Shown: piece by piece, positions 20,577-62,083 of the stretch
Layout: the number at the start of each line of letters is the position of its first letter
Numbering within the stretch: position 1 is the first letter of the stretch
Assembly (NCBI GenBank): GCA_029237695.1
Contig: CM055272.1
Location: 12,450,042-12,514,041 of the forward strand
From: Conchocele bisecta
Lineage: Eukaryota; Mollusca; Bivalvia; Lucinida; Thyasiridae
DNA length: 64,000 nucleotides
Direction of reading: 5' to 3'
Translations under genes and position numbers: made by a program
Notes under the pieces: model-generated
What the model was told of the DNA's origin: nothing
Databases searched by the model: none
What the model saw: only the letters and a program-made list of their open reading frames with translations

Positions 20577-20916
20577 CGGAGCCCCGCATGGGACGTAGAA
20601 TTCAATTCGTTCCCACGAATTAACAATTCATTCCCTCAATTTAGCAATTCGTTCCCACGAAATAACAATTCGTTCCACGGGAACTAATTGTTTATTCGTG
20701 GTACAATTCGTTCCACGGGAACTAATTGTTTATTCGTGGGAACGAATTGTTATATGGTGGGAATTAATTGTTAATTCGATGGAACGAATTGTTACATTGA
20801 GAGAACGAATTGGCAATTTGTGGGAACGAATTGTTAATTCGAGGGAACGAATTGTTATATCGAGGGAATGAATTGTTATTTCGTGGGAACGAATTAATAA
20901 AACAGCGGGGCTCCGT
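20577..20916. mobile_element. Family I element: foldback whose arms are 21 bp tandem repeats, copy 1
   Basis: It is bounded by ACGGAGCCCCGC and GCGGGGCTCCGT. The left arm is a run of CAATTCGTTCCCACGAATTAA-like 21 bp units. The right arm is a run of the complementary units (GAACGAATTGTTATTTCGTGG). The element therefore folds back through tandem arrays rather than unique arms. Confidence 0.7.
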
Positions 20917-27270: not shown

Positions 27271-27646
27271 TTAACAATTCGTTCCCACGATATTACAATT
27301 CGCTCCCTCGAATTAAGAATTCGTTCCAACGAAATGACAATTCGTTCCCTCAATTTAACAATTCGTTCCGTCGAATTAACAATTCGTTCCCACGATATAG
27401 CAATTTATTCCCCCGAATTAACTATTCGTTCCAACGAAATGACAATTCGTTCCCTCAATTTAACAATTCGTTCCCTCGAATTAACAATTCGTTCCCACGA
27501 TATAGCAATTGGTTCCCTCGAATTAACAATTCGTTCCAACGAAATGACAATTCGTTCCCTCAATTTAACAATTCGTTTCCTCTAATTAACAATTCGTTCC
27601 CACGATATAACAATTCGTTCCCACGTGGGAACAAATTGTTAAATTG
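27271..27646. mobile_element. Family I element, 21 bp unit array, copy 2 (one arm expanded)
   Basis: About seventeen CAATTCGTTCC(C/A)(T/A)CGAATTAA-like 21 bp units run in one direction. A very short complementary arm (CCCACGTGGGAACAAATTG) remains at the right end. Long open frames rich in Asn, Ser, Phe, Pro and Arg are an effect of the 21 bp (7 codon) period, not a gene. Confidence 0.7.
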
Positions 27647-31881: not shown

Positions 31882-32155
31882 ATGAACAGCACAAACGTGA
31901 CGTCGACGTCGGCGGCGTTGGAGGATTTGGACGTCACGTTCCTGCTCTACTACTACGGCATCTTCCTGCTGATCACGTGCGTCAATATCCCTGGCAACGT
32001 GGCAATCATCTGTACGGTGATCCGCAACCCCCAGCTCCGGCAGCCGTGCAACTTCTACATCACCAGTCTCGCCGTCTCCGACCTACTCATCGCCCTCATG
32101 TACCCGCTCTACGTCGTCTCGCATCTCCAGGACAACCGCGTCGGCAAGGACCTGG
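31882..32155 (+). CDS. GPCR exon 1 (N-terminus, TM1, TM2)
   Basis: The ATG at 31882 is the first in frame and gives a short extracellular tail before TM1. Residues 1-91 plus one base are encoded. TM1 spans about residues 20-45 (GNV at 38-40) and TM2 about 57-80. The donor is CCTGG|GTACGT (phase 1). An upstream TTG in the same frame at 31873 is not a plausible eukaryotic start. The region is GC-rich compared with its surroundings, as expected for coding sequence here. Confidence 0.92.
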
Positions 32156-35100: not shown

Positions 35101-38100
35101 TGAAAATAGAAACGACCCAGCGGTCCTAGTATCCTCATATACATGTATCTTTAATTAAACAACTTTACACGGCCTTGATGAAAAACGTTTTTATTTTTTT
35201 TATAGTATTTTTTTAAAAAGTCCTGATATACCCCTTTAAAACGTCCATTTACAATGGACGGGAAGTGTCGAGACTGCTGTTCTGATAAATACACGTCGAG
35301 GTTTAATTGAGTTTACGTCTAGACTACCATCCCGAGGCAAGAGCGATACATATACATATTTGTCCGATAATTGACAGAACTAGTTTTTCATTTCTAACTC
35401 GTTTCAGCATCAGTATAGCAAATTCGTGTTTCTAGTACATGTACCGGGTAACACCCGTTGTGGTTGCAACAGGTAATGTCAATCGGCATAGCTGATTACA
35501 ATTTTCAAGGCGATATTAGTAACATGAATAGTTGTGTTTTAGTATCGAATTGCATAGAGTATGCACGGTGGTGAGAATCAGCAACACATTGTATTCTAAG
35601 ATTAACCTTTTGAACCCGAAAGCCCGCTATAGCGGTTTATGCAAACAGTGCCGATCCAGATGAGCCGGCTCGTAACGAGCCGTCTCATCAGGATCTGCAA
35701 TTTTTGCTAGTAATTTTCATATTTTTAAAACGCCCCATTTTCATAAATGGAAAATTAACATATCAAAATCCAGTCCAGTTACTTAGCGGTGAATGGGTTA
35801 ACTCTTTGCATTATATACAAGCGGTGAAAAGAACAGTCAACATATTAAAGAGTATTATTCTTATTTCCCTCTGTCAATATGTGTCGGAATTTCATTACAT
35901 GTAGTCTTCAAATTCCATTAGAATTGTGTCCGGTGGGCTCTCCGGACTGAATGTCAATGAAATTCCAATACATAATCATGATCATTAAATTAAAGAAAAT
36001 GATTACCGTTGCTACATGTATGTTGTAAGAATCAATAGCCCACCGTTTTCCCAGCATGCAAAAAGTCAAAACCTGTGAACCGCCGTAACTGTTACGTGTT
36101 ACAGATTTGTGGTGAAAATAACAACCAGGGCTCTGTTGTTCAAAACATCAGTTAGCTTAACGGACTGTTAAATCCTTAACTGAATGGTTGAAATCTCTGT
36201 TGGTTGTTCAAAACATCAGTTAGCTTAACGGACTGTTAAATCCTTAACTGAATTGTTAAAATCTCTGTTTAACAGAGATTTCAACCATTCAGTTAAGGAT
36301 TTAACAGTCCGTTAAGCTAACTGATGTTTTGAACAACCGGGTCCAGTAAATTAGGAGAATTATAATCGAGTCCAATACATGTTCATGATATTTACATTAA
36401 AGAAAACATAATATACAGTATAACCCCTGTAAACCGGACACGCAGCAAGTTTTGTATACTTAACTTTATGTGTGTCATCGTCATCTACATCTGATGATAC
36501 TGCCTGTGCAAGTTCGCAAAGCACAGCCGCATGCCTTGGCATAGTCATATGTCTGATTTACAGTGGAACCTCTCTAAACCTCTCTCCCATGGGGACCTCC
36601 CAGTGTGTCCGGTTTGAGGAGGTTCCACTGTGCTATCGGCTCCTGTTATTGAACTACATATGTAGCCCACACGTTTTTCAGCATGCGTCAACCCCAGTTA
36701 CATGTTGCAGGTCTGTGGTCGACGTGTCGCCTCGTGATGGGACAGGTGCTGGCCCTGGAGGCGTGCTCCTCCTACACACTGGTTGCCATCACTGTAACCC
36801 GCTACATCGCCATTGTTCACCCGCTTCGCTACCACCTCTACATCACGCGCCGCACCACCTACATCACCATCGCCGCCATCTGGCTCCTCTCCCAGGGCAT
36901 CTGTGCAGCCCTTTACACAATGTACAACCCCGGTACGTACATGGTGTATATCTCCCAGGGCATCTGTGCCGTCCTTTATACAATGTAGAGCCCCGGTACG
37001 TACTTGGTGTATATCTCCCAGGGCATCTGTGCCGTCCTTTATACAATGTAGAACCCCGGTACGTACTTAGTGTATGTCTCTCAGTGCATCTGTGCCGTCC
37101 TTTATACAATGTAGAACCCCGGTACGTACTTAGTGTATATCTCCCAGGGCATCTGTGCCATCCTTTATACACTGTACAACCCCGGTACGTACTTAGTGTA
37201 TATCTCTCAGGGCATCTGTTCCGTCCTTTATACAATGTAGAACCCCGGTACGTACTTAGTGTATATCTACCAGGGCATCTGTGCCGTCCTTTTTACAATG
37301 TAGAACCCCCGTACGCACTTAGTGTATATCTCCCAGTGCATCTGTGCCGTCCTTTATACAGTGTAGAACCCGGTACGCACTTACTGTATATCTCCCAGGG
37401 CATCAGTGCCGTCCTTTATACAATGTAGAACCCCGGTACGTACTTAGTGTATATCTACCAGGGCATCTGTGCCGTCCTCTATATAATGTACAGTCCCGGT
37501 TCGTACTTAGTGTATATCTACCAGGCCATCTGTGCCGTCCTTTATACAATGTAGAACCCCGGTACGTACTTAGTGTATATCTCCCAGGGCATCTGTGCCG
37601 TCCTTTATATAACGTACAACCCCGGTACGTACTTAGTGTATATCTCTCAGTGCATATGTGCCGTCCTTTATACAATGTAGAACCCCGGTACGCACTTAGT
37701 GTATATCTCTCAGTGCATCTGTGCCGTCATTTACACAATGTACAACCCCGGTACGTACTTAGTGTATATCTCACAGGGCATCTGTGCCGTCCTTTATACA
37801 ATGTAGAACCCCGGTACGTACTTATTCTATATCTACCAGGGCATCTGTGCCGTCCTTTATACAATGTAGAACCCCGGTACGTACTTAGTGTATACCTCTC
37901 AGGGCATCTGTACCGTCCTTTATACAATGTAGAACCCCGGTACGTACTTAGTGTATTTCTCCCAGGGCATCTGTGCCGTCCTTTATACACTGTACAACCC
38001 CGGTACGTACTTAGTGTATATCTACCAGGGCATCTGTGCCGTCCTTTATACAATGTAGAACCCCGGTACGTACTTAGTGTATACCTCTCAGGGCATCTGT

Positions 38101-41100
38101 TCCGTCCTTTATACAATGTAGAAACCCCACCGGTAACGTACTTAGTGTATATCTCCCCGGGCATATGTGCCGTCCTTTATACACTGTACAACCCCGGTAC
38201 GTACTTAGTGTATATCTCCCAGGGCATCTGTGCCGTCATTTATACAATGTAGAACCCCTGTACGTACTTGGTGTATACCTCTCAGGGCATCTGTTCCGTC
38301 CTTTATACAATGTAGAACCCCGGTACGTACTTAGTGTATATCTCCCAAGGCATCTGTGCCGTCCTTTATACACTGTACAACCCCGGTACGTACTTAGTGT
38401 ATATCTCCCAGTGCATCTGTGCCGTCCTTTATACACTGTACAACCCCGGTACGTACTTCGTGTATATCTACCAGGGCATCTGTGCCGTACCTTTATACAA
38501 TGTAGCACCCCGGTTACGTACTTAGTGTATATCTCACAGGCATCATGTGGCCGTCCTTTATACATGTACAACACCGGTACGTAACTTTTATCTATATCTA
38601 CCAGGGCATCTTGTGCCGTCCTTTATACAATGTAGAACCCCGGGGTACGTACTTAGTGTTATACCTCTCAGGGCATCTGTGCCGTCCTTTATACAATGTA
38701 GAACCCCGGTACGTACTTAGTGTATATCTACCAGGGCATCTGTGCCGTCCTTTATACAATGTAGCACCCCGGTACGTACTTAGTGTATATCTCCCATTGC
38801 ATCTGTGCCGTCCTTTATACATTGTACAACCCCGGTACGTACTTATTCCATATCTACCAGGGCATCTGTGCCGTCCTTTATACAATGTAGAACCCCGGTA
38901 TGTACATAGTGTATACCTCTCAGGGCATCTGTTTGCCGTCCTACCCCCCCCCCCCCCCTTTTTGATACATGTAGAAACACCCCGGTATGTACTTAGTGTA
39001 TACCTCTCAGGGCATCTGTGCCGTCCTTTATACAATGTAGAACCCCGGTACGTACTTAGTGTATACCTCTCAGGGCATCTGTTCCGTCCTTTATACAATG
39101 TAGAACCCAGGTACGTACTTAGTGTATATCTCCCAGGGCATCTGTGCCGTCCTTTATATAATGTACAACCCCGGTACGTACTTAGTGTATATCTACCAGG
39201 GCATCTGTGCCGTCCTTTATACATGTATAACCCGGTACGGTACGTTATAGTGTATACCTCTCAGGGCATCTGTGCCGTCCTTTATACACTGTACAACCCC
39301 GGTACGTACTTATTATATATCTACCAGGGCATCTGTACCGTCCTTTATACAATGTAGAACCCCGGTACGTACTTAGTGTATATCTCCCAGGGCATCTGTG
39401 CCGTCCTTTATACACTGTACAACCCCGGTACGTACTTAGTGTATATCTACCAGGGCATCTGTGCCGTCCTTTATACAACATAGCACCCCGGTACGTACTT
39501 AGTGTATATCTACCAGTGCATCTGTGCCGTCCTTTATGCACTGTACAACCCCGGTACGAACTTAGTCTATATCTACCAGGGCATCTGTGCCGTCCTTTAT
39601 ACAATGTAGAACCCCGGTACGTACTTAGTGTATATCTCTCTGGGCATCTGTGCCGTCCTTTACACAATGTAGAACCCCGGTACGTACTTAGTGTATATCT
39701 CTCAGGGCATCTGTGCCGTCCTTTATACAATGTAGAACACCAGTACGTACTTAGTGTATATCTCTCAGGGCATCTGTGCCGTCCTTTATTAAATGTAGAA
39801 CCCCGGTACGTACTTAGTGTATATCTCCCAGGGCATATGTGTCGTCCTTTATACACTGTACAGTTCCGGTACGTACTTAGTGTATATCTCCCAGGGCATT
39901 TGTGCCGTCCTTTATACAATGCACAGTCCCGGTACGTACTTAGTGTATATCTCCCAGGGCATCTGTGTCGTCCTTTATACACTGTACAATCCTGGTACGT
40001 ACTTAGTGTATATCTACCAGGGCCTCTGTGCCGTCCTTTACACAATGTACAACCCCGGTACGTACATGGTGTATATCTCCCAGGGCATCTGTGCCGTCCT
40101 TTATACATTGTACAACCCCGGTACGTACTTAGTGTATATCTCCCAGGGCATCTGTGCCGTCCTTTATACAATGTAGAACCCCGGTACGTACTTAGTGTAT
40201 ATCTCCCAGGGCATCTGTGCCGTCCTTTACACAATGTAGAACACCGGTACGTACTTAGTGTATATCTCACAGGGCATATGTGCCGTCCTTTATTCACTGT
40301 ACAACCCCGGTACGTACTTAGTGTATATCTCCCAGGGCATCTGTGCCGTCCTATATACACTGTACAACCCTGGTACGTACTTAGTGTATATGTCCCAGTG
40401 CATCTGTGCCGTCCTTTATACAATGTAGAACCCCGGTACGTACTTAGTGTATATCTCCCAGGGCATCTGTGCCGTCCTTTATCACTGTAGAACCCACTGG
40501 TGCGTACTAGGTGTATTATCTCCCAGCATCTGTGCCGTCCTTTATACACTGTACACGGTACGTACTTAGTGTATATCTCATCAGGGCATCTGTGCCGTCC
40601 TTTATACACTGTAGAACACTGTCGTCTTTAGTGTATGATCTCCCAGGGCATCTGTGCCGTCCTTTATACACTGTACAACCCCGGTACGTACTTAGTGTAT
40701 ATCTCCCAGGGCATTTGTGCCGTCCTTTATTCACTGTAGAACCCCGGTGCGTACTTAGTGTATATCTCCCACGGGCATCTGTGCCGTCCTTTATACATGT
40801 AACAACCTGGTACGTACTTAGTGTATATCTCCCAGGGGCATCTGTGCCGTCCTTTATACACTGTACAACCCCGCGGTACGTACTTAGTGTATATCTCTCA
40901 TGGGCATTTCTGTGCCGTCCTTTATCACTGTAGAACGGTACGTACTTAGTGTATATCTCACAGGGCTATCGTGCCGTCCTATATACACTGTACAACTGGT
41001 ACGTACTTAGTGATATCTCTCAGGGCAGATGCCGTCCTTTATACAAATGAACCGGTCCCGGTAACCCGTACTTTAAAGTTAGTGGTATATCTCTCAGAAG

Positions 41101-44100
41101 TATCTGTGCCGGTTTTTTTTCCCCCTGTACAAATAATTACAACCCTGGTACGGACTTAGTGTATAATCTTCTCAGGGCAATATGGTGCCGGTCCTTTATA
41201 CAATGTTACATCCCGGTAGTACTTTAAGTTTCGTGTATATCTCTCAGAGTTTGTGTTTGCCGTCTGTACACAATTTACAACACTGGTACGTATTAGTATA
41301 TCTCTCAGGGCATATGTGCCGTCCATTTATACAATGTACACAAGTCACGTACGTACTTTAAGTTAGTGTATATCTCTCAGTAGTATCTGTGCCGTCCCTG
41401 TAAACAATTTATCTAAACCCTGGTACGTACTTAGTGTATATCTCTCAGGGCATATGTGCCGTCCTTTATACAATGTACAGTCCCGGTACGTACTTTAAGT
41501 TAGTGTATATCTCTCAGAGTATCTGTGCCGTCCTGTACACAATTTACACCTGGTAGGTACGTACTTAGTGTATATCTCTCAGGGCATATGTGCCGTCCTT
41601 TATACAATGTACAGTCCCGGTACGTACATGTACTTTAAGTTAGTGTATATCTCTCCGAGTATCTGTGCCGTCCTGTACACAATTTACAACCCTGGTACGT
41701 ACTTAGTGTATATCTCTCAGGGCATATGTGCCGTCCTTTATACAATGTACAGTCCCGGTACGTACTTTAAGTTAGTGTATATCTCTCAGAGTATCTGTGC
41801 CGTCCTGACACAATTTACAACCCTGGTACGTACTTAGTGTATATCTCTCAGGGCATATGTGCCGTCCTTTATACAATGTACAGTCCCGGTACGTACTTTA
41901 AGTTAGTGTATATCTCTCAGAGTATCTGTGCCGTCCTGTACACAATTTACAACCCTGGAACGTACTTAGTGTATATCTCTCAGGGCATATGTGCCGTCCT
42001 TTATACAATGTACAGTCCCGGTACGTACTTTAAGTTAGTGTATATCTCTCAGAGTATCTGTGCCGTCCTGTACACAATTTACAACCCTGGTACGTACTTA
42101 GTGTATATCTCTCAGGGCATATGTGCCGTCCTTTATACAATGTACAGTCCCGGTACGTACTTTAAGTTAGTGTATATCTCTCAGAGTATCTGTGCCGTCC
42201 TGTACACAATTTACAACCCTGGTACGTACTTAGTGTATATCTCTCAGGGCATCTGTGCCGTCCTTTATACACTCTACAACCCCGGTACGTATTTAGTGTA
42301 TATCTCACAGGTCACCTATTCGGAAGCCCATTAGGGCCACATTAACTGTTTATTTTTTATTATTGACATTTATTCAAGATAACATATTGCATTTTCAAGA
42401 TATTTTCTTGAATTTTCATCATCTTGTCCCTGAATTTTCATGATATTACATCTTTTTTCGACTTTTCAAGAAGTTTTCTTAAATTTTCAATATATTTTCT
42501 TGAATTTTCATGTTAATGTCATCGGTATCACTACACCAATCCACCGCTCGCTGGTCACCTTGACAATACTAACAAAAGTCCAAAAGGCATTGCCGATATG
42601 CAGGAGTGGATAAGGTCACTGAGGACCTTTCTTTATTTTATTATCAAACCTGTCAGCGAGGGGAGTAGATTGTGTTAACGATGCCCTTATTTGGCATGTG
42701 TGACCAGTTTGGCTCCCGATCTCTATATTTCGAGGTGGATTGAGGATTGGGGCTTATGTCATTTATGGCTAGTCTGACTTCTGATCTCTATACGTGGTTG
42801 GAAGATTGGGGCTTATGACAATTGTGGCCAGTTAAATAAATTGTAAGCTATCTAGCCAGGTTTTGGATTGATTTTTATGCCCGTGGTCTCGGTAGAGCCG
42901 GAGGCATATATTGTTTGGACTGTGTGTCCATGTGTCCATGTGTCCGTCCGTGTGTCTGGCACATTAAGAAGTTCACCGGAGTTTCGAAATTATGTTTTAA
43001 CTTCTATATCCCTTGAAGAATTACTTAAATAGTTCAACACAGTATACCTGTGGACAAATGCCACACATCCTTGCTTCCCTTAATACTACCTTGATCTTTT
43101 GACATTGACAACTTTGAACTGTTTCCCAATTTAAGAAGTTCGCCGGAGTTTCAAAATTCTGTCAGAACTTCTATATTCCTTGAATGATTACTTGCTGCCC
43201 TTAATATGACCTTCACAACTTTGAACTTTTTCACACATTAAGAATTTAGCAGGCGTTTCGAAATTATGTCATAACTTCTATACTCCTTGAAGGATTACGT
43301 AAATATTTCAACACAGCATACTTGTGGACAAATGTCATACATCCATGATGCCCTTAATATCCTTAATATTGAAGGATTACTTTAATAGTTCAATACCGCG
43401 GTACATCGTACTTGTGGACGAATGCCACACATCTATGCTGCCATTAATATGACCTTTTGACCTTGAACACTTTGAACCTTTTCACACATTAATAAATTCG
43501 CCGGAGTTTCTCAATTCTGTCATAACTTCTATATCCCTTGATCGATTACTTTAATATTTCAATACATCAAACCTATGGACAAATGCCACATATCCATGTT
43601 GCCCGTTCACCATTTGATCCTCACAACTGTGCTTATCAATACTTATCACTTTCGGTTAATTACCGTTGCCGCAGTTTCTCCAATCTGGCACCGGGGACAT
43701 TCGTGTGCCGATAGGCCAGATGTTCTTGTTTCAAAAACGTTTCTTTTTTTCGATCTTCCTCCTCGCTCCCCAGATTATTTTAGCCCCACATTTAATTCCC
43801 ATAAGAAAATAGACATCACTGACTCTTTGTTAATCATGAAAATGTACTTACATTTTTTTTTTTAGATTTTATTTGTTTAATAGCCTAAAGTATTTCGACA
43901 GAAAGACAGGTACAACAAACAGTAGTGAATATCTCCCAGGGCACCTGTGCTGTCTCCATACACACTATACCTAAAAGGAGGCAGTGTCGAAAACAGAAAC
44001 GGAAACGGAAATTTCCCGAAACCTAGCTACATATGTGGTGTATATGTAATTGATCTCGTACGTACTTGCTGTGTAGCCACTGGTGCAGTTTAACTGGTAC

Positions 44101-47100
44101 AGTTCCACACCATTTTATTTGCAGACGAACATTTGGCTATTAAACACATTAAATCTAAACAACTATTTAAGTGTACATGTAAGTAGTTTTTCATCAATAA
44201 CAAAAAGTCCCCCCACCCACCCCCCACAAAACAGTTTGATGAAATTCCACCATCAAACAATTTTTTTATAGCGAAAAAACAATTTCCTATGGGAATTTAA
44301 CATGGGGGTTAGAACATTTTTTAATATAATTTTTGCAATTTGTGGACCGATTTTCAAAATATAACGTTTGTTTTCGTAGTTACGCACATCATTTCTAAGC
44401 TATCTAGCCTGGTTTTGAAGCCAATTTCCATTTCTCTCGTTTTTTGACTCTTCCCCGAGCTCCTCCACATCCATTTCCCATGTTAAATTACCATAGGAAA
44501 TTTCTTTTCGCAATACAATCAATATTTGATGGAATTTCATCAAATAATCTTTTTTGACAAGGGTGACATTTTCGTTCTGATAAAACCAAATTAAGTTTTT
44601 GTTTTTAAATCTGTAGTCAATGGCTTGTAAAGTAAAGGTGTCATGTTTCATTTATTTCTTTGCTTTTGTCGGATATGAAATGTGTCATTGTCAAATATTT
44701 CTTTGCTTTTGTCGGATATGAAATGTGGCATTGTCAAAGTATATGAAAAACAATAACTGTTACATCTTCTAGCTCCAATCTCAGCGAAATGCAATTTTAA
44801 GAGGTAAACTGACCAACTGATGCACAATTTACATACCTATCGAATGCTACCAGTAAAGTATTCAAACTGTTCAGGTTTATGAGCTGTACTAACGATACGT
44901 CATTGAAACTGTTAAGGTTTATGAGCTTGACTAACGATACGTCATTTAAATCTTTGAGGTTTATGAGCTGTACTAACGATACGATACGTCATTCAAACTG
45001 TTCAGGTTTATGAACTTTAGTAACGATAATTCATTCAAACTGTTCAGATTTATGAGCTGTACTAACGATACGTCATTGAAACTGTTTATGTTTATGAGCT
45101 GTACTAACGATACGTCATTGGAACTGTTGAGGTTTATGAGCTGTACTAACGATACGTCATTTAAACTTTTGAGGTTTATGAGCTGTACTAACGATACGAT
45201 ACGTCATTCAAACTGTTCAGGTTTATGAACTGTACTAACGATACGTCATTCAAACTGTTGAGGTTTATGAGCTGTACTAACGATACGATACGTCATTCAT
45301 TTATAATTATTATAGTCATGCTGAATATTATTTATGATTTACTTCTACACATATACATGTAGATATATGTAGTAATTTTAGCACAAACTTACAAACGCGA
45401 ATTGATGTCTCAAAATTGAATTAATATTGTAATATTGTGAAAAATGTCATTGTTTGTAAATCGACACGCAATCTGTAAGAGAAATTTTAATACAAATAAC
45501 CTTGAAAACTATAACTGACATTTCCATCTTAAATTTAAGCTGATCACGTGTCAGAGAAAGTGCAGGCCAACTATGATATTGACAAATAACCATTATTAAC
45601 TGTATTAAGCCTTGGCTGACATTTGAAACAGACAATGTGGGCGTGCACGAGAAAGCTCTGTTGTCTAAAACTGGTACAAATTTGTCTGTCATTGATTGAT
45701 TATGCTTTCCTAACTCATTTTGCGTGTCATTATTAATCCTTATACTGCTGAATTAAAGTTTGTAGTCTGCTGCTCATTTTTATTTTACTTTCGAGTTTTC
45801 TCATAAAAAACAGGATTTGACAAGATTTCGAATCATTTCCCATGATTCCGTAAAAACGTAAATCCACCAGTTGAAATTTCCAGACCATCATAAATGTGCA
45901 CTTAGGAACATCTTAGCCGCACGAAGTTTAGTGCTACGGGTTCCTGGTTAGTCAAGTCAATTACTATGAATTGGTGCTATTGTTCCAGAGAACTACGCTG
46001 GCGTGTGCCGGTTTGAGCTGGTGTACTCGGTGACACACGTTGTGATGTTCCTGACAATAATGCTGATCGTGCCCTTCTGTGTCATGTTGGCGCTCTACAC
46101 CCGCATCGTGAACATCGCCAAACAGCAGGTATGGTATCCAGAGTCCATGTTTGAGTTCTACACACCACATTGTCAACATCGCCAAACAGCAGCTATGGTA
46201 TACTGAGCCAATGTTTTAGTTCTACACCCGCATCTTGAACATCGCCAAACAGCAGGACCTGGTATGGCATGTTGAGACCATGCATGAGTTCTACACATAA
46301 CCTTGTCAACATCGCCAAGCAGCAGCTATGGTATAGTTTTAGTTCTACACCCACATCTTGAACATCGCCAAACAGCAGGTATGGTCTCACTATGTATGAG
46401 TTCTATACACCACCTTGTCAACATCGCCAAGCAGCAGCTATGGTATACTGAGCCCATGTTTTAGTTCTACACCCACATATTGAACATCGCCAAACAGCAG
46501 GTATGGTATGTTGAGACCATGTTGGAGTTCTACACCCACATTGTCAACATCGCCAAACAGAAGCTATGGTATACTGAGCCAATGTTTTACTTCTACACCC
46601 GCATCGTGAACATCGCCAAACAGCAGGTATGGTATGTTGAGACCATGTTTGAGTTCTACACACCACATTGTCAACATCGCCAAACAGCAGCTATGGTATA
46701 CTGAGCCAATGTTTTAGTTTTACACCCGCATCGTGAACATCGCCAAACAGCAGGTATGGCATGTTGAGACCATGTTTGAGTTCTGCACACGCATTGTCAA
46801 CATAATCAAACAGCAGGTATGTCATGCTGAGTCCATGTTTGATTTCTACACCCACATTGTCAACATCGCCAAACAGCAGGTATGGTATACTGAGCGCATG
46901 CTTGAGTTATGTACATCCACATTGCCAACATCGCCAAACAGCAGCTATGGTATACTGGGCCAATGTTTTAGTTCTGCACCCGCATCGTGAACATCGCCAA
47001 ACAGCAGGTATGGTATGCTGATACCATGTTTAAGTTCTACACCCACATTGTCAACATCACCAAACGGCAGGTATGGTATACTGAGCGCATGCTTGAGTTC

Positions 47101-50100
47101 TGTACACCCACATTGTCAACATCGCCAAACAGCAGCTATGATATACTAGGTCAATTTTTTAGTTCTGCACCCGCATCGTGAACATCGCCAAACAGCAGGT
47201 ATGGCATGTTGAGACCATGTTTGAGTTCTACACCCGCATCGTGAACATCGCCAAACAGCAGGTATGGTATGCGGAGCCCATGCTTGAGTTCTACACCCGC
47301 ATCGTGAACATCGCCAAACAGCAGGTATGGTATGCGGAGCCCATGTTTGAGTTCTACAAACCACATTGTCAACATCGCCGAACAACAGGAATGGTATACT
47401 GAGCCCATGTTTGAGTTCTACAGCCGCATTGTTAACATCACCAAATAACTGGAAAGGTATACTGAGCCCGTGTTTGAGTTCTACAACCGCATTGTCAACA
47501 TCGCCAAACAGCAGGACTGGTATGATATGCTGAGTCCATGTTTGAGTTCTACATCCACATCGTCAACATAGTCAAACAGCAGGTATGGTATACTGAGCCC
47601 ACGTTTGAGTTCTACACCCACATTGTCAACATCACCAAACAGCAGGTATGATATGCTGAGCCCATGTTTGAGTTCTGTACACCCACATTGTCAACATCGC
47701 CAAACAGCATGTATGATATACTGAGCCCATATGTGAGTTCTACACTCGCATTGTCAACATCGCCAAACAGCAGGTATGGTATGCTGAGCCCATGTTTCAG
47801 TTCTATACACCCACATTGTCAACATCGCCAAACAGCTGGTATGGTATACTGAGCTCATGTTTGAGTTCTGTATACCCACATTGTCAACATCGCCAAACAG
47901 CAGGTATGGTATACTGAGCCAATTTTTTAGTTCTACACCCACATTGTCAACATCGCCAAACAGCAGGTATGGTATACTGAGCCCATGGTTAAGTTCTAGA
48001 CTCACATTGTCAACGTCACCAAACAACACGTATGTTATGCTGAGCTCGTGTTGGAGTTCTGTACTTCCACATTGTCAACATCGCCAAACAGCAGGTATGG
48101 TACACTGATCCCATGTTTGAGTTCTAGACCCACATTGTCAGCATCACGAACAGCAGGTATGGTATGCTGAGACCATGTATGAGTTATGTAAACCTGCATT
48201 GTTAACATCGCCAAATAGCAGGTATTGTGTACTCAGCCACTGCTTGAGTTATGTACACCTGCATTGTTGACATCGCCAAATAGCAGGTATGGTATACAGA
48301 GCCCATGTTTGAATTCATGTACACCCGCATTGTCAACATCGCCAAACGGCATGTATGGCATACTGAGCCCATGTTTGAGTTCTACACCCGCATTGTCAAC
48401 ATCGCCAAACAGCAGGTATGGTATACGGAGCAATGTTTGAGTTCTGTACACCCGCATTGTCAAAATCATCAAACAGCATGTATGGTATGCTGAGCCCATC
48501 TTTGAGTTCTACACCCACATTGTCAACATCACGAAACAGCTGGTATGGTATACTGAGCCCATGTTTGAGTTCTACATTCACATTGTAAACATCACCCTAA
48601 AATAAACAGCAGGCAAGTATGGTATGCTGAGCCCCATCTTTGAGTTAGTCTACATCCCACCTTTTGGTCAAACATCGCCAAAACCCAGTAGGTATGCTGA
48701 CCCTGTTTTAGTTTTCTGTACACCCGCAATGTCAACACGCCAAACAGCAGGTAATGGTAATCTGATCCCAATGTTTAAGTTTCTGTACACCACATTGTCA
48801 ACATCGCCAAACTGCAGTAATGGTAACCAAAGAGCCCATGGTTTAATTATGTCCCATGTTTAAGTTCTGTACCACCAGCAGTAAATATAAACTGCAGGAT
48901 GGTATACTGAGCCAATGTTTGAGTTATGTATACCATGCAATTGTGTACTTCGCCAGATAGCAGGTATTGGTGTACAGAGCCCAATGTTTGAATTATGTCA
49001 CCCGCATTGTCACTCACCCAAAAACAGAAGGTATGGTATACTGAGCCATGTTTAAGTTCTGTGCACCGCACTGTCAACACATCAAACAGCAGGTTGGTTA
49101 TTACTGAGCACCCATGTTTAAGTTCTGTACACCCGCATTGTCAACACACCAAACAGCAGGTATGGTATACTGAGCCCATGTTTAAGTTCTGTACACCCGT
49201 GTTGTCAACACACCAAACAACAGGTATGGTATACTGAGCCCATGTTTAAGTTCTGTACACCCGCATTGTCAACACACCAAACAGCAGGTATGGTATGCTG
49301 AACCCATGTTTAAGTTCTGTACACCCGCATTGTCAACACACCAAACAGCAGGTATGGTATACTTAGACCATGTTTAAGTTCTGTACACCCGCATTGTCAA
49401 CACACCACACAGCAGGTATGGTATACTTTAGACAATGTTTTAAGTTTGTACACCCGGCATTGTCAACACACCAAACAGCAGTTATGGTATACTGAGCCCA
49501 TGTTTAAGTTCTGTACACCCGCATTGTCAACACACCAAACAGCAGGTATGGTATACTGAGCCCATGTTTGAGTTCTGTACACCCACATTGTCAACATCGC
49601 CAAACAGATTGGATGATATACTGAGCCCATTTAGTGAGTTCTACAAACGCATTGTCAACAAGCCAAACTGCAGGTATGGTATGCTGAGACCTTGTTTCGA
49701 GTTATATACACCCACATTGTCAACATCGCCCAAACAGATGGTATGGTATTACTGAGCTCTTGTTTGAGTTCTGTATACCAATTTGTCAACATGCAAAACC
49801 TGCAGTATGGTATACTGAGCCAATTTTTTGAGTTCTTACACCCCACATTGTCAACATCGGTTCAAACAGCAGGGTTAGGTTTACTGAGCCATGGTAAGTT
49901 CTAGATCTTATTGCCAACGTCACCAAAAACACGTATGTTATGCTGAGCTCGTGTTGGAGTTTGTACTTCCACATTGTCTACATCGTCCAAACAGCAGGTT
50001 ATTGGTTACACTGATCCATGTTTGAGTTCTAGACCCACATTGTCAGGCATCACGAACAGCAGGTATGGTTTTGCGGAGACCATGTATGAGTTATGTAAAC

Positions 50101-53100
50101 TGCTTGTTAACATTCGCAAATAGCAGGGTATTGTGTAACTCAGCACTTGTTTGAGTTATGTACACCTGCATTGTTGACACATCGGCCAAATAGCAGGTAT
50201 GGGTATACAGAGCCCATGTTTGAATTCATGTACACCCGCATTGTCAACATCGCCAAACGGCATGTATGGCATACTGAGCCCATGTTTGAGTTCTACACCC
50301 GCATTGTCAACATCGCCAAACAGCAGGTATGGTATACGGAGCAATGTTTGAGTACTGTACACCCGCATTGTCAAAATCATCAAACAGCATGTATGGTATG
50401 CTGAGCCCATCTTTGAGTTCTACACCCACATTGTCAACATCACGAAACAGCTGGTATGGTATACTGAGCCCATGTTTAGTTCTAGTTCGGTTCACATTGT
50501 AAACATCACCAAACAGCAAGTATGGTTAGGCTGAGACATGTTTGAGTTATCTACATCCACACTTGGTAAACATCGCACCAAACAGTAGGTATGGTATGTG
50601 AGCTCGGTTTGAGTTTGTACACCAAATTGTCAACATCGCCAAACAGCAGTATGGTTTATTTATACTGAGCCCAATGTTTGAGTTATGTACCCTGCATTGT
50701 TAACATCGCCAACTAGCAGGTATGGTGTACAGAGCCCATGTTTGAATTATGTACACCCGCATTGTCAACACACCAAACAGCAGGTATGGTATACTGAGCC
50801 CATGGTTTAGTTCTGTGCACCCGCACTGTCACACACATTCAAACAGCAGGTATGGTATAGGAGCCATGTTAAGTTCTGTACCACACCGCATTGTCAACAC
50901 ACCAAACAGCAGGTATGGTATACTGAGCCCATGTTTAAGTTCTGTACACCCGTGTTGTCAACACACCAAACAACAGGTATGGTATACTGAGCCCATGTTT
51001 AAGTTCTGTACACCCGCATTGTCAACACACCAAGACAGCAGGTATGGTTTGCTGGACCCATGTTTAAGTTCTGTACACCCGCATTGTCAACACACCAACA
51101 GCGGTATGGTATACTTAGACCATGTGTTTAAGTTCTGTACACCCGCTTAGTCTAAACACCAAACTGCAGGTATGGTTATTCTGAGCCATGTTTAAGTTCT
51201 GTGCACCCGCATTGTCAAACATCAAACAGCAGGTTTTGTATACTGAGCATGTTTAAGTTCTGTACACCCGCATTGTCAAACACACCAAAACAGCAGGTAT
51301 GGTTTACTGAGCCCATGATTTAAGTTTGTACACCCGCATTGTCAACACACCAAACAGCAGGTATGGTATACTGAACCCATGTTTAAGTTCTGTACACCCG
51401 CATTGTCAACACACCAAACAGCAGGTATGGTATACTTAGACCATGTTTAAGTTCTGTTACACCGCCATGTCAACACACCAAACAGCAGTATGGTATACTG
51501 AGCATGTTTAAGTTCTGTACACCCGCTTGTTCAACACACCAAAACAGCAGGTATGGTATACTGAGCCCATGTTTAAGTTCTGTACACCCGCATTGTCAAC
51601 ACACCAAACAGCAGGTATGGTATACTGAGCCCATGTTTAAGTTCTGTACACCCGCATTGTCGACATCACCAAACAGCAGGTATGTAATGCTGAGACCATG
51701 TTTGAGTTCTACACCCGCATTGTGAACATCGCCAAACAGCAGGTATGGTATGCTGAGCCAATGTTTGCGTTTTACAAACCACATTGTCAACATCGCAAAA
51801 CAGGAGGTATGATATGCTGAGCCCATGTTTGTGTTCCACACACCACATTGTAAATATCGCTAAGGACAAACTTATTGAGGTTCGGTCATACCACTGCAAG
51901 TAGGATCGAACCTTTTATTAGTTTGTTAATATATACTAGCCAGCTCTTACATGGTACCAATATAGGATAGTCTGCTTGTCAACATGTTTTGAGAGTGATA
52001 GAAACTTGGTAAACCTGATATAATATCAAAAGTCACTAACTGATATTCGTCCCGCATTCCACCACCGCCTGCCTGCGCTAATTTGCCAATATTTGTAAAT
52101 GTGTTTATCAAAAAAATACTGGATTATTGTGTTTCAAAGTAAGCAGCTTGATTGGCGGAGCCTGAGCTGTGCTACAGATCAGACACAACCAATCAAACTG
52201 CTTGATTGCGAGTGGATACTGCCAATAGATGTTTAGAAACGTTGACATCTTAGAAATGTGACCACAGGCGGTGGTGTAGGCGAATGCAAAGCTCGTTACA
52301 TGCACCTGATACACGGGTTTATTACGTAGATTTCAAATTCTGACTATTTATGGCCGTTATTTGCCAACCGCATTAACTGTCATTTCGGCTAATTCTGCGC
52401 ATCGGCTAATGCGCAATTCACGTCAAATTTAGACTAGCATACGTCATAATAAAATATGTGGACTTTGGAATAAACAAGCTGATTAATTGCTACACTGTGG
52501 CACATTTTTATCACATTCCGATAGTTTTGTAAAAAGTTATTCAGAATATAGTCAACATGTGTAAAACCCTCAGACCCTGCTGATGGAATAACTGTCTTCT
52601 TTATTAATTTAACTGTTCAATTAAGAAACTAACCTGTCATAATGTCGTTGGATAGTTCTGCTTCAAGTTTAATACCAATTTTGCTATTCTGATCCAGTAT
52701 GCTGTTCGCCATTTTGTTTACACTACCAGATGCGCAGCATTAGCAGAAACAAATGTGCAAACACACATGTGATGTCATACATCACACAATTTGCATCCCT
52801 TACTGACGTCAGAACATTTAACTTGCACAGATTGAATATGGGGACGTTAATGACATATTTTGTTTGGAAAGCCTTTGGTGCTCAGAATTAGCCGACTAGT
52901 CAGATATCACTAATCATGGGTAATAAAATGTCTCTTGCCCGTATCTGACTGGAAACATTGTATGACGCATGCGCAGTTAGTTACTATTTGCTTCCTTCCC
53001 AACTCGTCGAGAAAAAAATCAAGATGGCTGCTTTACAGTTAAATCCCATTTCAACGTTTGAGAACAATCATTGCCAATGCAGCTGAGCATGAACAATCCA

Positions 53101-55286
53101 TCAGCTTCAACAGTAGTTGCAGCCTGTAACTATGTGAAACTCCCGTACAGTACGTTCTGATACGTACGGTACGGGGGGGGGGGGGGGGGGTCACAAGGTT
53201 AATGGCTACAACTACTTCAACAATAATGCACCTTCGGTCTCAGGCTGATGTCAAGTTACCTCGGGCTGATACCTAGGTTGTATCAAACTAGCCAGGTAAT
53301 AACCTCTAATAATCAGGTAACTAGCTTTGTCTTGGCTGTACTGACTGATAACATATTGCTGTATCAGGCATTGTCCTGATATGAATATCCGGGTTACTAC
53401 ACATTGAGAATTGGCGTTTTATTGGTCGAACGTGGTCACATGACGTTACTGAATTACGTCAGTGGAATGACGTCACGGAAACAAGTCCGAGTTATTTTCA
53501 ACGAAAACAACGTCATAATTGCTCATTATGTAGCCAAAACGTTACCTGATAAATTGAATACCGTGCTAACGTCATTTGATTGGCAAACCTCGGAATTCTT
53601 ACGCGTTTCCTATCCTTGCCTGATAAACTTGATATCAAAAGACACTAGCACGGTATTATATATGTGTTAACACAGGCGAACAAGATGGCGGTGTTGGTGG
53701 TCCGGGACGGCGACTGCCCGGACACGTGCACGCCGAGCATGCTGCCGAGCGAGTTCAAGTCCACGGTGATGGTGTCTATCCTGCTCGGCTTCTTTACCAT
53801 ATCGTGGACGCCGATGTGTGTCTACTTCTTCGTCTCCGTGCTCTGTACTAGCTGTAAGATCAACAAGTATGTCAGGTACGGATATACACACGGGTTTGAA
53901 CTCACCCGTTCGCTCATTAACCCTTAAAATGGTGGAAATAATACATAATGTTCATGTGAATCTCAATTCCTATATCTTAAAACAAACACATGTGTTGGAT
54001 TAAACATATTGTATTTGTGCATGTATATAATTTACAATTAAGGAATCGATAGTAGTACAATGTATATCAGGCCCGTAGCGGTGTGTAAAATAATGCCACG
54101 GCAGCCTTTTTAGCAGGAAAAATTCCACTTAGACCCTCAAAATTGGCTGACGAAAAATGAAAAACAGGCCAAAATAATGCCACGGCAGCACGGCATGGCC
54201 GCTACGGCCCTGTATAATATACATAATTATACAAATGGGATTGGATGGAATGCTAGCTTAAAATATATAAATCCTCTCACATGTGTTGGCAGTACATTAC
54301 AATTGCCTCCGCTAAATACGCACATTTGTCTTGATCAATGTTAAAAAACGGACAAAACAACGAGAAGACAATACACACTCAAGTTCAACTTGTAAATATG
54401 GCCTTTCATTATTCATCGCATAACACCGATGATCATAAACCGATGCTTTTGTTTCGTTCCACGCTTTTCTGCCGAACTACTTTTGGCTATTAACCACATT
54501 AAATCTAAAAACATATTTAAATTTAAGTACTTTTCAATCAATAAAAAAAATTCACTCTCCATATGTTATTCATTTGATGAATTTTCATCAAATAATTTTA
54601 ATATGAGAACAATGTACACAAAAGTTAGATTTTGAAAATCGGTCCTCAAATTCCAAATTTTCTTTTAAAAATCTGTTTTATCCCCCATGTTATTAACATG
54701 GTTAACAACTCATAGAAAAATGTAATTTCCCTATAAAATAAATGTTTGACAAAACATGGGGGGAGGGGGGGGGGGGGCAACTTTCTTAATATTTACGAAA
54801 AACATAATAAATTATCTATACTGTCGTTCTGATTAGTATGTTTTACCCACAACAATATTTGCTGAACATGATTTTGAGACACATACCACCAGCTGGCATA
54901 ACCGGCTTCATTCGGAACAAGTCAGCTAGTCTAGACCAGAAAGCAACACATGCACACTGATTTCCGTTTCCAGGGCGACGGTGCGGATTATACTCTACCT
55001 CAACTCGGCCGTCAACGTGTTTATATACGCCGGCCGACTCAGTGACTTTCGGCAGAATATTCGCAAGGACGCGCGCGATTGTTGTTCCATGTGCTGCCAT
55101 CTATTCCATCGCATTCAGACGCGTTTACACGGACGGCCACGTTTGGGTTCTGAGAGCTCCACACGAACTAAAAATAGACACGACTCTAAGTTTTTGTTGG
55201 AGAGAATTTCGTCCAGTGAAAAGTCGTCTAAAACGATAGAGGACCGCACACCGAGAACTGAACAAGACGCTACTGTCGTGTCTTAA
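31882..55286 (+). CDS. Class A (rhodopsin-family) GPCR gene, five coding exons, 382 aa
   Basis: Exons 31882-32155, 36711-36932, 45989-46128, 53676-53875 and 54974-55286 join without frameshift (1149 nt including TAA; intron phases 1, 1, 0, 2). The product has a short N-terminus with N-glycosylation sites at Asn2 and Asn5 and seven hydrophobic helices. Hallmarks by position: Asn39 (1.50), LAVSD with Asp67 (2.50), Cys97 and Cys172 (conserved disulfide), Arg122 (3.50), Trp149 (4.50), Pro194 (5.50), Tyr202 (5.58), SWTP with Trp256 and Pro258 (6.48/6.50), Asn293 and Tyr297 (7.49/7.53), and helix 8 with a CC..CC palmitoylation candidate at 315-320. It should act at the plasma membrane by coupling a ligand to G proteins. 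Residue 3.32 is Val104, not Asp, so a classical amine receptor is unlikely; an adenosine-like or orphan identity is possible. The ligand is unknown. Confidence 0.93.
32156..32389 (+). repeat. Intron 1 start with one degenerate duplicate of the exon 1 end and donor
   Basis: At 32234-32260 the sequence GGACAACCGCGTTGGTACGT, followed by CCAATAT, repeats the end of exon 1 plus donor (GGACAACCGCGTCGG..GGGTACGTCCATTAT at 32130-32169) with an internal deletion of roughly 14-15 bp. It lies about 104 bp downstream of the original. It is a single-copy counterpart of the satellites in introns 2 and 3. Confidence 0.75.
32390..32736. mobile_element. Family E element, copy 3 (in intron 1)
   Basis: TATAGGAATGAATGGCATTT to TTGTGCTGGAATTAT with the hairpin turn GAAGGCCGGAAGGCCT intact. 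Confidence 0.7.
32737..33293. repeat. Dispersed intronic repeat (family O) in intron 1
   Basis: Segments such as CGCAATACAATCAATATTTG and the preceding TATTAAATGCATTAAATAT (32360-32390) recur, diverged, at 44090-44600 and 54430-54750 in introns 2 and 4 of the same gene. There are no clear termini or coding capacity. It is possibly an old element or an intron-to-intron duplication. Confidence 0.45.
33294..33540. mobile_element. Family D pogo-like MITE, copy 4 (truncated)
   Basis: It starts CAGTGCAACCTCTCTACAAC, contains the AATGATTCTAAAGTGCTGTC palindrome half and loses similarity near 33540. Confidence 0.6.
33702..34071. mobile_element. Family D pogo-like MITE, copy 5
   Basis: CAGTGCAACCTCTCTACAAC to CGGGGAGGTTCCACTG with TA flanks, in the inverse orientation to copies 1 and 3. 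It has a perfect central palindrome around 33868-33890. Confidence 0.7.
34171..34230. mobile_element. Family C MITE fragment, copy 6
   Basis: GGGTGTCCGGTTTAGAGAGG..TTCAACTGT with a decayed left half. A further terminus-only fragment lies at 34727-34755. Confidence 0.5.
34349..34488. mobile_element. Foldback element with GGGCCCGG ends
   Basis: Outer pairing TACTAATGTACTCTGGGCCC / GGGCCCATGGTACACTAGTA and an inner perfect hairpin GCGCACGAAGGCCGGGA. The outer GGGCCCGG resembles family H, but the body differs. Confidence 0.55.
34790..35235. repeat. Inverted repeat with internal duplication in intron 1
   Basis: A segment containing GTTTAATTGAAGATATATGA is repeated at 34968-34990 and appears inverted at 35140-35165 (ATACATGTATCTTTAATTAA). 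The inner arms TTCTATTTTCACC / GGTGAAAATAGAA at 35008 and 35098 complete a large, imperfect foldback of about 0.4 kb. Confidence 0.55.
35602..35801. mobile_element. Family G foldback element, copy 5
   Basis: TTAACCTTTTGAACCCGAAA to TAGCGGTGAATGGGTTA, with the hairpin GCCGATCCAGATGAGCCGGC. The right side is internally deleted. Confidence 0.6.
36127..36345. mobile_element. Family H foldback, copy 2 (duplicated left arm)
   Basis: The left arm GTTAGCTTAACGGACTGTTA occurs twice before the single right arm TAACAGTCCGTTAAGCTAAC. It ends TTTTGAACAACCGGGTCC. Confidence 0.65.
36416..36630. mobile_element. Family C pogo-like MITE, copy 8, 80 bp upstream of exon 2
   Basis: CAGTATAACCCCTGTAAACC at the left, an inner CAGTGGAACCTCTCTAAACC copy and a GAGGAGGTTCCACTG end. 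Its right end is 80 bp before the exon 2 acceptor, so it may lie within the branch-point neighbourhood. Confidence 0.65.
36711..36932 (+). CDS. GPCR exon 2 (ECL1, TM3, ICL2, TM4)
   Basis: The acceptor is TACATGTTGCAG|GT and the donor CCCCG|GTACGT (phase 1 on both sides). It encodes residues 92 (split) to 165 plus one base. Contents: the ECL1 Trp94, Cys97, TM3 (about 97-122) ending TRY at 121-123 instead of D/ERY, ICL2 with PLRY, and TM4 with Trp149. The last 45 bases are the source of the array that follows. Without splicing, the reading frame would meet a TAG at 36986 in the first repeat unit. Confidence 0.93.
36888..42310 (+). repeat. Array A: 63 bp satellite made of the exon 2 end plus splice donor
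   Basis: The first unit is the genuine exon 2 tail (45 nt from TCTCCCAGGGCATCTGTGC to AACCCCG) plus 18 nt of intron (GTACGTACATGGTGTATA). Units then repeat head to tail at 63 bp (for example GTACGT at 36933 and 36996). By length there are about 85 units. Each keeps a donor-like CCCCG|GTACGT and an acceptor-like TATATCTCCCAG, 37 nt apart. From about 41470 the array changes to a 132 bp two-unit period (a 63 bp and a 69 bp unit). Long open frames on both strands follow from the 63 = 3 x 21 period. Confidence 0.95.
42311..42963. other. Intron 2 sequence after array A
   Basis: T-rich repeats of TTTTCTTGAATTTTCATGA at 42385-42510, then unique-looking sequence with twice-repeated ATTGGGGCTTATG..GTGGCCAGT at 42745 and 42805. 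No exon. Confidence 0.4.
42964..43607. repeat. Diverged tandem repeat, unit 110-170 bp
   Basis: About four copies start AAGAAGTTC(G/A)CCGGAGTTTC and continue ..AACTTCTATAT(C)CCTTGA.. and GTGGACAAATGCCACA. The spacing is irregular through internal deletions. An old satellite, non-coding. Confidence 0.6.
43608..44082 (+). repeat. Intron 2 segment with an isolated relic of the array A unit
   Basis: At 43927-43972, AATATCTCCCAGGGCACCTG and TGCTGTCTCCATACACACTA match the exon 2-derived unit with about 20% difference, 1.6 kb beyond the end of array A. CTCGTACGTACTTGCTGTGT at 44055-44075 may be another donor-side relic. Confidence 0.5.
44083..44760. repeat. Family O dispersed repeat in intron 2
   Basis: It shares TGGCTATTAAACACATTAAA and CGCAATACAATCAATATTTG with introns 1 and 4. 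A 55-60 bp direct repeat (TTTCTTTGCTTTTGTCGGAT) sits at 44657 and 44698. No gene. Confidence 0.45.
44868..45297. repeat. Minisatellite, 42-47 bp unit, intron 2
   Basis: About ten units contain GGTTTATGAGCTGTACTAAC, then GATACGTCATT. Some units carry an extra GATAC. The 42 bp period is a multiple of three and gives a spurious open frame. Confidence 0.85.
45298..45849. other. Intron 2 3' part, nothing recognised
   Basis: AT-rich sequence; 45735-45850 resembles a decayed family D interior (CATTTCCCATGATTCCG). No exon. Confidence 0.35.
45850..45947. mobile_element. Family B foldback right half, copy 7, 41 bp upstream of exon 3
   Basis: GTAAATCCACCAGTTGAAAT through ACATCTTAGCCGCACGAAGT to GCTACGGGTTCCTGG. 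The left arm and core are gone. It ends 41 bp before the exon 3 start, within reach of the branch point. Confidence 0.6.
45989..46128 (+). CDS. GPCR exon 3 (ECL2, TM5, start of ICL3)
   Basis: Acceptor TATTGTTCCAG|AG (phase 1) and donor CAGCAG|GTATGG (phase 0). It encodes Glu166 (split) to Gln212. Cys172 is the expected partner of Cys97. TM5 (about 176-202) has Pro194 and Tyr202. The 140 nt length is not a multiple of three, so skipping it would shift the frame. It sits between the two splice-junction satellites, and its last 35 nt seed the second one. Confidence 0.93.
46091..51862 (+). repeat. Array B: 63 bp satellite made of the exon 3 end plus splice donor
   Basis: Units consist of an exon 3-derived part (CTACACCCGCAT, then CGTGAACATCGCCAAACAGC and AG) and about 28 nt of intron (GTATGGTATACTGAGCCCAT..). 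The exon part is base-for-base identical to exon 3 in units ending at 47261 and 47324, which are exactly 63 bp apart. About 85-90 units are present by length. A variant with ..AACACACCAAACAGCAG dominates 48970-51650. Blocks near 48220-48590 recur near 50145-50500, giving a higher-order period of about 1.9 kb. Units carry CAG|GTATGG donor-like sites but no good acceptor. Confidence 0.95.
51863..53675. other. Intron 3 3' part
   Basis: No exon apart from exon 4 at its end. It includes a poly-G run at 53174-53190 beside GTACGG repeats, and several TGACGTCA-like motifs at 53430-53580. No recognised element family. Confidence 0.4.
53676..53875 (+). CDS. GPCR exon 4 (ICL3, TM6, ECL3)
   Basis: Acceptor GTGTTAACACAG|GC (phase 0) and donor GTCAG|GTACGG (phase 2). 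Residues 213-278 plus two bases. It contains ICL3 and TM6 (about 241-266) with FF..SWTP: Phe252 at 6.44, Trp256 at 6.48, Pro258 at 6.50. Unlike exons 1 to 3, no downstream duplicate of its end was found. Confidence 0.92.
53876..54973. other. Intron 4, containing family O sequence
   Basis: 1098 bp. 54430-54750 carries family O-like sequence (TTTGGCTATTAACCACATTA, ATTTTCATCAAATAATTTTA) related to introns 1 and 2. A poly-G run lies at 54761-54777. Confidence 0.5.
54068..54212. mobile_element. hAT-like MITE with CAGGCCCGTAGCGG ends (intron 4)
   Basis: Starts CAGGCCCGTAGCGGTG and ends CATGGCCGCTACGGCCCTG. An internal direct repeat AAAATAATGCCACGGCAGC lies just inside. CAGGG/CAGGC-type ends suggest hAT (inference). 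No coding capacity. Confidence 0.65.
54974..55286 (+). CDS. GPCR exon 5 (TM7, helix 8, C-tail, stop)
   Basis: Acceptor TCCGTTTCCAG|GG (phase 2), ends TAA at 55284-55286. Residues 279 (split) to 382. TM7 carries NVFIY at 293-297 where NPxxY is usual (Pro7.50 replaced by Val). Helix 8 (RLSDFRQNIRKD) and cysteines at 315, 316, 319 and 320 follow. The basic, Ser/Thr-rich tail offers kinase and arrestin sites. Confidence 0.92.
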
Positions 55287-61825: not shown

Positions 61826-62083
61826 ATTAATTCGTTCCCACGAAATAACAATTCGTACCTCAATTTAACAATTCGTACCCACGAATTAACGATTCATTCC
61901 CTCAATTTAACAATTCGTTCCCACGAAATAACAATTCGTTCCCACGGGAACGAATTGTTAGTTCGTGTGAACGAATTGTTATATCGTGGTAACGAATTGT
62001 TATTTCGAGGGAACGAATTGTTAAATTGAGGGAACGAATTCTTATTACTAAAAAAAAATCCATGTCCCTGCGGGACTCCGTAG
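61826..62083. mobile_element. Family I element, copy 4, abutting a lectin exon
   Basis: 21 bp CAATTCGTTCCCACGAAATAA-type units face complementary GAACGAATTGTTATTTCGAGG units. It ends CCCTGCGGGACTCCGTA at 62083, 24 bp before the acceptor of the exon at 62108. Confidence 0.7.

What the first reader, a model, noticed from the sequence alone, without database searches (positions are those of the whole stretch)
36888..42310. A satellite array grown from an exon-intron junction (exon 2 end + donor)
Seen directly: the first unit of a ~5.4 kb, ~85-unit tandem array is the true last 45 nt of GPCR exon 2 plus the first 18 nt of intron 2, and every unit repeats that junction including CCCCG|GTACGT. Tandem duplication across an AG/GT-containing boundary is a known model of intron gain and growth, but a full satellite seeded at an authentic splice donor is not something I know described. 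It could dilute or buffer donor choice, bind U1 along its length, or be a neutral expansion.
Basis: partly seen in the sequence, partly recalled or inferred. Interest (0 to 1): 0.92.

Follow-up and report, generated by a model that had tools for sequence, protein, structure and literature searches.

The report
Exon-end splice-donor repeat arrays
In a large animal genome (probably a mollusc), two neighbouring introns of a receptor gene are mostly filled by thousands of bases of short repeats copied from the end of their own upstream exon plus its splice signal, and the same kind of array turned up at several unrelated exons of that genome.

Summary
Array 1 (36888-42311) has 84 full 63-bp units; the first is exactly the last 45 nt of GPCR exon 2 plus 18 nt of intron 2. 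Correction: CCCCGGTACGT occurs 38 times, not in every unit; the donor GT survives in 83 of 84.

In the same 1.89-Gb genome I found donor-anchored arrays at eight further exons (periods 20-138 bp): ten in eight genes, plus one putative. Homology supports six of the ten exons; four rest on frame and splice signals.

Most of ten aligned relatives keep the exon ends, so the exon came first. Array donors lead to stops and donor columns are not specially conserved overall. I favour tandem duplication across the donor, tolerated because the first donor is used (inferred; no RNA data).

A single such array is not new: human ABCA7 (PMC5954066), CBS (PMC2630376). Recurrence in one genome is the new part; its frequency is unmeasured.

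The parts
31882..32155 (+). GPCR exon 1 (CDS from ATG), donor CTGG|GTACGT; no array
36711..36932 (+). GPCR exon 2, acceptor TTGCAG|GTCTG, donor CCCCG|GTACGT, phase-1 end
   Evidence: relatives
36888..36950 (+). Founder unit of array 1: last 45 nt of exon 2 + first 18 nt of intron 2
36888..42311 (+). Array 1: 84 full 63-bp units plus a partial one; about 59% of intron 2; last part arranged as ~132-bp dimers
43923..43969 (+). Isolated degenerate array-1 unit in intron 2
   Evidence: nhmmer E=6.3e-7; BLAST
45989..46128 (+). GPCR exon 3, donor CAGCAG|GTATGG, phase-0 end
46083..46145 (+). Founder unit of array 2: last 46 nt of exon 3 + first 17 nt of intron 3
46083..51862 (+). Array 2: 89 units of ~63 bp plus a partial one; about 76% of intron 3
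53676..53875 (+). GPCR exon 4, donor GTCAG|GTACGG; no array
54974..55286 (+). GPCR exon 5 with stop codon

Best explanation
Each array is a minisatellite born by a short tandem duplication that spanned the authentic 5' splice site of its upstream exon, then expanded by unequal exchange or slippage into the intron. The exon copy stays in place as unit 1 and its donor is the one used for a functional mRNA; all later units, most with a decoy donor, are removed as intron. Shown: the founder unit is exon end plus donor; relatives keep the exon ends; array donors lead to in-frame stops; the same anatomy at ten exons of the genome. Inferred: that the first donor is used in this animal, that growth is near neutral, and the recombination step. 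Array 1 begins with TCTCCCAGG in the exon and ends with TCTCACAGG in the intron, which fits a microhomology-mediated first duplication.
For: Founder units identical to exon end plus donor. Of ten relatives aligned (of 21 found), seven resemble the exon 2 end (three closely, SQGVCIVMYTIYNP) and seven clearly resemble the exon 3 end (e.g. MLGLYVRIAKIARTQ); P0013, P0014 and P0016 are weak. Using donor 2 of array 1 gives an in-frame stop; exon 3 read on into array 2 also reaches a stop. Across eleven arrays (ten plus the putative L043) the period modulo 3 is 0 in six and 1 or 2 in five, so use of array donors would shift the frame in those five. The donor window ranks 29 of 63 and 8 of 63 nine-column windows, and 12 of 63 and 16 of 63 cyclic shifts do as well as the core donor columns: no strong sign of selection on the repeated donors. 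Other donor-anchored arrays. Human precedent: in ABCA7 retention of one unit is about 2% as I read the passage, so the first donor serves most transcripts there (my inference; PMC5954066).
Against: No RNA data: donor use is not measured. GT is kept in 83 of 84 units of array 1, rank 4 of 62 dinucleotides, which selection on donors would also give. Pure survivorship predicts many more arrays in mid-intron than at donors; in this gene two of the three arrays with ten or more copies are at donors, which suggests a bias that neutrality alone may not explain (small numbers). ABCA7 arrays are not neutral: length lowers expression and raises skipping of the next exon. In CBS 844ins68, a duplicated intron 7/exon 8 junction, the distal site is strongly favoured (the paper calls these donor sites, though such a junction is the acceptor side, so the parallel is loose).
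Confidence: 0.8

Rival explanations
1. 5' splice sites are real hot spots of minisatellite birth in this genome (for example through R-loops, polymerase pausing or the GC step at exon ends), not merely the sites where duplications survive.
For: Ten donor-anchored arrays in eight genes; two apparently consecutive donors hit in each of two genes (GPCR, and the L011 gene, relatives of whose second exon bear PF26039). Exon ends are GC-rich: 0.48-0.62 in the last 60 nt.
Against: Found mostly by searching for donor-like motifs and by fetching only the 5' side, so biased. Genome-wide, pairs of CAGGTAAGT 42-72 nt apart are no commoner than the reversed control: 466 against 510. Four non-dispersed arrays inspected in 20 stretches on C1 showed no clear exon, one being doubtful; three other window arrays showed none. 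Three arrays have a definite or possible exon of the opposite strand beside them instead.
Confidence: 0.35
2. The arrays are functional: the repeated donors bind U1 snRNP and protect long introns from premature polyadenylation, or buffer donor choice.
For: Donor GT kept in 83 of 84 units of array 1 (rank 4 of 62 dinucleotides) and 76 of 89 of array 2.
Against: Other columns are kept as well; U1 pairing of the array-1 donor is only moderate, -6.5 kcal/mol against -14.0 for a perfect site, and several early alternate units of array 2 have CTATGG in place of GTATGG.
Confidence: 0.08
3. Assembly artefact: the arrays are much shorter or partly duplicated by mis-assembly.
For: Indel-rich zones; array-2 lag-29 identity is raised (0.861, the highest of the lags tried), consistent with a ~1.8-kb internal duplication.
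Against: Units differ by substitutions (mean pairwise identity 0.891 and 0.833), with coherent subfamilies; similar arrays stand on other contigs.
Confidence: 0.07
4. The introns themselves were created by tandem duplication of an exonic AG|GT motif and later grew (classic tandem-duplication intron gain).
For: Array 2 units contain CAG|GT, a ratchet-like AG|GT.
Against: BLAST of the exon 3 and exon 4 starts hits no array unit, and the arrays end 3.7 and 1.8 kb before the next exons. For the second exon of the L011 gene, ORFs of relatives run past the same exon end into unrelated letters, which fits an intron already there (inference).
Confidence: 0.04

Closest known systems
ABCA7 intron 18 VNTR, human (PMC5954066; passages read)
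   Same: Tandem array whose first unit contains the authentic donor; kb-scale (298-10,678 bp); expands into the intron; a donor site at the start of the unit, one of whose copies is used in a minor isoform (single-unit retention).
   Different: 25-bp unit that starts at the GT itself, so no exon letters (as in our L038); single locus; known to be polymorphic, with next-exon skipping rising and expression falling with length.
CBS 31-bp VNTR c.1444_1467+7(16_21), human (PMC2630376, PMC1395315, PMC5188458; passages read)
   Same: Unit = exon end (24 nt) + first 7 nt of intron, as I read the variant name; here 45+18 and 46+17.
   Different: 16-21 units, about 0.5-0.65 kb; single locus; more units reported to go with lower enzyme activity (PMC5188458 passage).
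Intron gain by tandem duplication of proto-splice sites, Drosophila (PMC2891723; passages read) and human introns from tandem arrays (Zhuo et al. 2007: title seen in a reference list; paper not held)
   Same: Tandem duplication across a splice motif.
   Different: There a duplication creates an intron; here it enlarges existing ones, with exon copy and donor unchanged.

Membership tests
Donor-anchored VNTR (ABCA7/CBS type) | First unit contains the authentic splice donor of a coding exon | tested here: met
Donor-anchored VNTR (ABCA7/CBS type) | Tandem units continue into the intron only | tested here: met
   Array 1 to 42311, array 2 to 51862, both ending inside introns 2 and 3
Donor-anchored VNTR (ABCA7/CBS type) | Copy number varies between individuals | not testable with these tools
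   one assembly only
Donor-anchored VNTR (ABCA7/CBS type) | Length affects splicing or expression | not testable with these tools
   no RNA data held
Intron gain by tandem duplication | Intron bounded by the duplicated AG|GT motif, downstream exon continuing from the last unit | tested here: not met
   BLAST of exon 3 and exon 4 starts hits no array unit
Rfam RNA family | Match above gathering score | tested here: not met
   0 matches in the window

The most novel reading that the evidence does not exclude
In this genome 5' splice sites act as recurrent birthplaces of satellites: donor-anchored arrays are a standing route by which introns, and so the 1.9-Gb genome, grow, driven by a mutational bias at exon ends and permitted because the first donor wins.
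Probability: 0.35. Interest if true: 0.85.

Novelty: new variant of a known kind. Interest (0 to 1): 0.7.

Why it matters
The donor-anchored VNTRs that I could find in print are isolated human loci studied for disease. A genome with at least ten donor-anchored arrays, including neighbouring introns of the same gene, would make them a class, offer natural replicates for asking why minisatellites start at donors, and give a test bed for how the spliceosome picks one donor among dozens of near copies. It would also describe a mutational route of intron growth without transposons.

Tried and rejected
Array peptide as a coding repeat: the 419-aa array-1 ORF gave no protein at E<=0.001 among the 8000 candidates scored, a capped set. 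RNA structure: z-scores -0.94 and +0.59 on the first 252 nt of each array. Rfam: none. Paper searches listed 1, 1, 1, 0 and 2 papers, none on point by title and abstract start (listings only). A general multiple-of-21 period was dropped: other arrays have periods 20, 30, 40, 44, 59, 65, 138. The window's arrays at 5353, 44860 and 57939 show no exon at their edges by eye. A planned unbiased survey of exon ends (PF00069) and the reversed-motif control list did not complete, so frequency is unmeasured. A first automatic period search picked multiples of the unit in several cases and was replaced.
Full report
WHAT IS THERE. The window holds a complete five-exon rhodopsin-family GPCR gene on the + strand (31882-55286; 383 aa). 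Among its 21 relatives the ten best are 48-54% identical, and the named ones of these come from Mytilus, Haliotis, Pinctada, Saccostrea and Ostrea, so the genome is probably that of a mollusc; it is unnamed, 1.89 Gb in 1196 contigs. Array 1 starts inside exon 2 at 36888 and runs to 42311: 84 full units of 63 bp and a partial one. Unit 1 is the last 45 nt of exon 2 and the first 18 nt of intron 2. The exact 11-mer CCCCGGTACGT occurs 38 times; GT at the donor position is kept in 83 of 84 units.

THE SECOND ARRAY. Intron 3 begins the same way. Array 2, 46083-51862, has 89 units of about 63 bp and a partial one; unit 1 is the last 46 nt of exon 3 plus 17 nt of intron 3. GT is kept in 76 of 89 units. 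BLAST of the exon 2 end hits no unit of array 2 and that of the exon 3 end no unit of array 1, so these look like two independent events with the same period. The arrays make up 59% of intron 2 and 76% of intron 3. BLAST with the starts and ends of exons 1 and 4 hits no array.

WHICH CAME FIRST. I aligned ten of the 21 relatives. Seven resemble the exon 2 end, three of them closely (SQGVCIVMYTIYNP against SQGICAALYTMYNP), and seven clearly resemble the exon 3 end; P0013, P0014 and P0016 are weak. So the exon is ancestral. A degenerate unit at 43923-43969 (E=6.3e-7) suggests an older or once larger array. Array 1 starts with TCTCCCAGG in the exon and ends with TCTCACAGG in the intron, as expected if a short imperfect direct repeat primed the first duplication (inference).

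RECURRENCE IN THE GENOME. (a) Loci L001-L008 were cut at the first eight of 147 matches of CCCCGGTACGT, and L009-L013 I fetched because of further matches listed there, mostly clustered ones. They contain donor-anchored arrays at four further exons: L002/L003 (138-bp unit, two similar loci), two apparently consecutive exons in L011 (44-bp and 20-bp units; the first also in the similar locus L012) and one in L013 (40 bp). The second L011 exon has eight relatives, best E=1.1e-24, whose precomputed Pfam is PF26039; Pfam run on the two joined exons itself gave nothing. That this is a DC-STAMP-like gene is my recall. The 44-bp arrays of L009 showed no exon at their edges, and for the 62-bp array of L013 no source exon was seen; the edges of the L010 arrays were not examined. 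(b) Of the 466 matches of CAGGTAAGT-N42-72-CAGGTAAGT, 100 are listed. I grouped these by eye into about 20 clusters, chose 12, mostly those that looked like arrays, and fetched only their 5' side, so an exon at the 3' side would have been missed. Of the 12: five start at an exon end with its donor: L034 and L035 (similar loci, 59 bp), L038 (Spondin_N exon, 65 bp), L040 (GTF3C1-like exon, 42 bp), L042 (metabotropic glutamate receptor exon, 30 bp); one is putative (L043, 30 bp, no Pfam match); three have an exon of the opposite strand beside the array (L037 alpha-amylase; L041 LRRK2 propeller; L039 by open frame only); one shows no exon (L036); two did not reach the array edge (L044, L045; a further stretch, L047, did not either). 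With the GPCR this gives ten exons in eight genes, similar loci counted once. Homology supports six: both GPCR exons, the second L011 exon, L038 (7.2e-13), L040 (4.4e-6) and L042 (1.5e-7 Pfam, 4.2e-12 PDB). The first L011 exon, L002, L013 and L034 rest on open frame plus splice signals; L002 and L013 gave no match in Pfam or PDB searches, L034 only a chance-level Pfam match (E=0.061).

ANATOMY ACROSS CASES. Exon nt + intron nt per unit: 45+18, 46+17, 9+35 and 17+3 (L011), 34+6 (L013), 112+26 (L002), 47+12 (L034), 8+34 (L040), 13+17 (L042), 0+65 (L038, which starts at the donor itself), and 11+19 for the putative L043. Period modulo 3 is 0 in six of eleven. In these eleven the exon copy is at the 5' edge, which the way of fetching partly builds in.

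CONTROLS AND NEGATIVES. The donor-motif pair is not in excess over its reversed control genome-wide: 466 against 510. In 20 stretches of 9.9 kb every 10 Mb on C1, 27 arrays with period of at least 10 and at least 3 copies were found; I inspected the edges of four that did not look like dispersed-repeat families and saw no clear exon, one (L023) being doubtful. Three other arrays of the window show none. So not every array is exon-anchored, and the frequency of donor anchoring is unknown.

FUNCTION. The donor is not strongly distinguished by conservation: its window ranks 29 of 63 (array 1) and 8 of 63 (array 2), and 12 of 63 and 16 of 63 cyclic shifts do as well; GT alone ranks 4 of 62 and 27 of 62 dinucleotides. 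RNA folds are ordinary. Use of donor 2 in array 1 would add an in-frame stop. The simplest account is that the first donor is used and the rest is spliced out. For the second L011 exon, ORFs of eight relatives continue past the exon end for 2 to 52 residues without a repeat; five of the eight tails are 23 residues or longer, more than three 20-bp units, and the other three are too short to tell. So that array is probably lineage-specific, if the tails are intron read-through (inference).

WHAT IS KNOWN. Human ABCA7: 25-bp VNTR whose first GT is the exon 18 donor, alleles about 12-427 units, about 2% single-unit retention as I read the passage, next-exon skipping rising and expression falling with length (PMC5954066, passages read). 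Human CBS: 31-bp VNTR spanning the exon 13 end and intron 13 start (passages read). So a single donor-anchored array is a known kind. Ten full-text searches (listings) did not show such arrays described as a recurrent class in one genome; most subscription papers are not held.

VERDICT. The recurrence, with two donors hit in each of two genes, is what deserves follow-up.

Noticed in passing
window 46083-51862: Array 2, seeded at the exon 3 end and donor, was not part of the finding; several early alternate units read CAGCAG|CTATGG, having lost the donor GT.
   Followed up: yes
window 44860-45287: A 42-bp, ten-copy array in intron 2 whose unit contains TACTAAC (a branch-point-like heptamer) and TTCAG|G; no exon source found in the window.
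   Followed up: partly
window 20603-20895, 27271-27625, 61829-62045; also L011, L014, L015, L022: A dispersed 21-bp repeat family (AATTCGTTCCCACGAATTAAC and its complement) in short arrays.
   Followed up: no
L037 (C1:73977700-73978750): Beside a minus-strand alpha-amylase exon, a block of roughly 110 bp holding the exon start, its acceptor and some intron is repeated upstream: an acceptor-side counterpart.
   Followed up: partly
window about 62100-62313: Open frame that resembles a C-type lectin exon (by eye from the ORF list; not searched).
   Followed up: no
window 38944-38958 and 53173-53190: Long C and G homopolymers, with indel clusters in the arrays, that look like residual long-read errors.
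   Followed up: no
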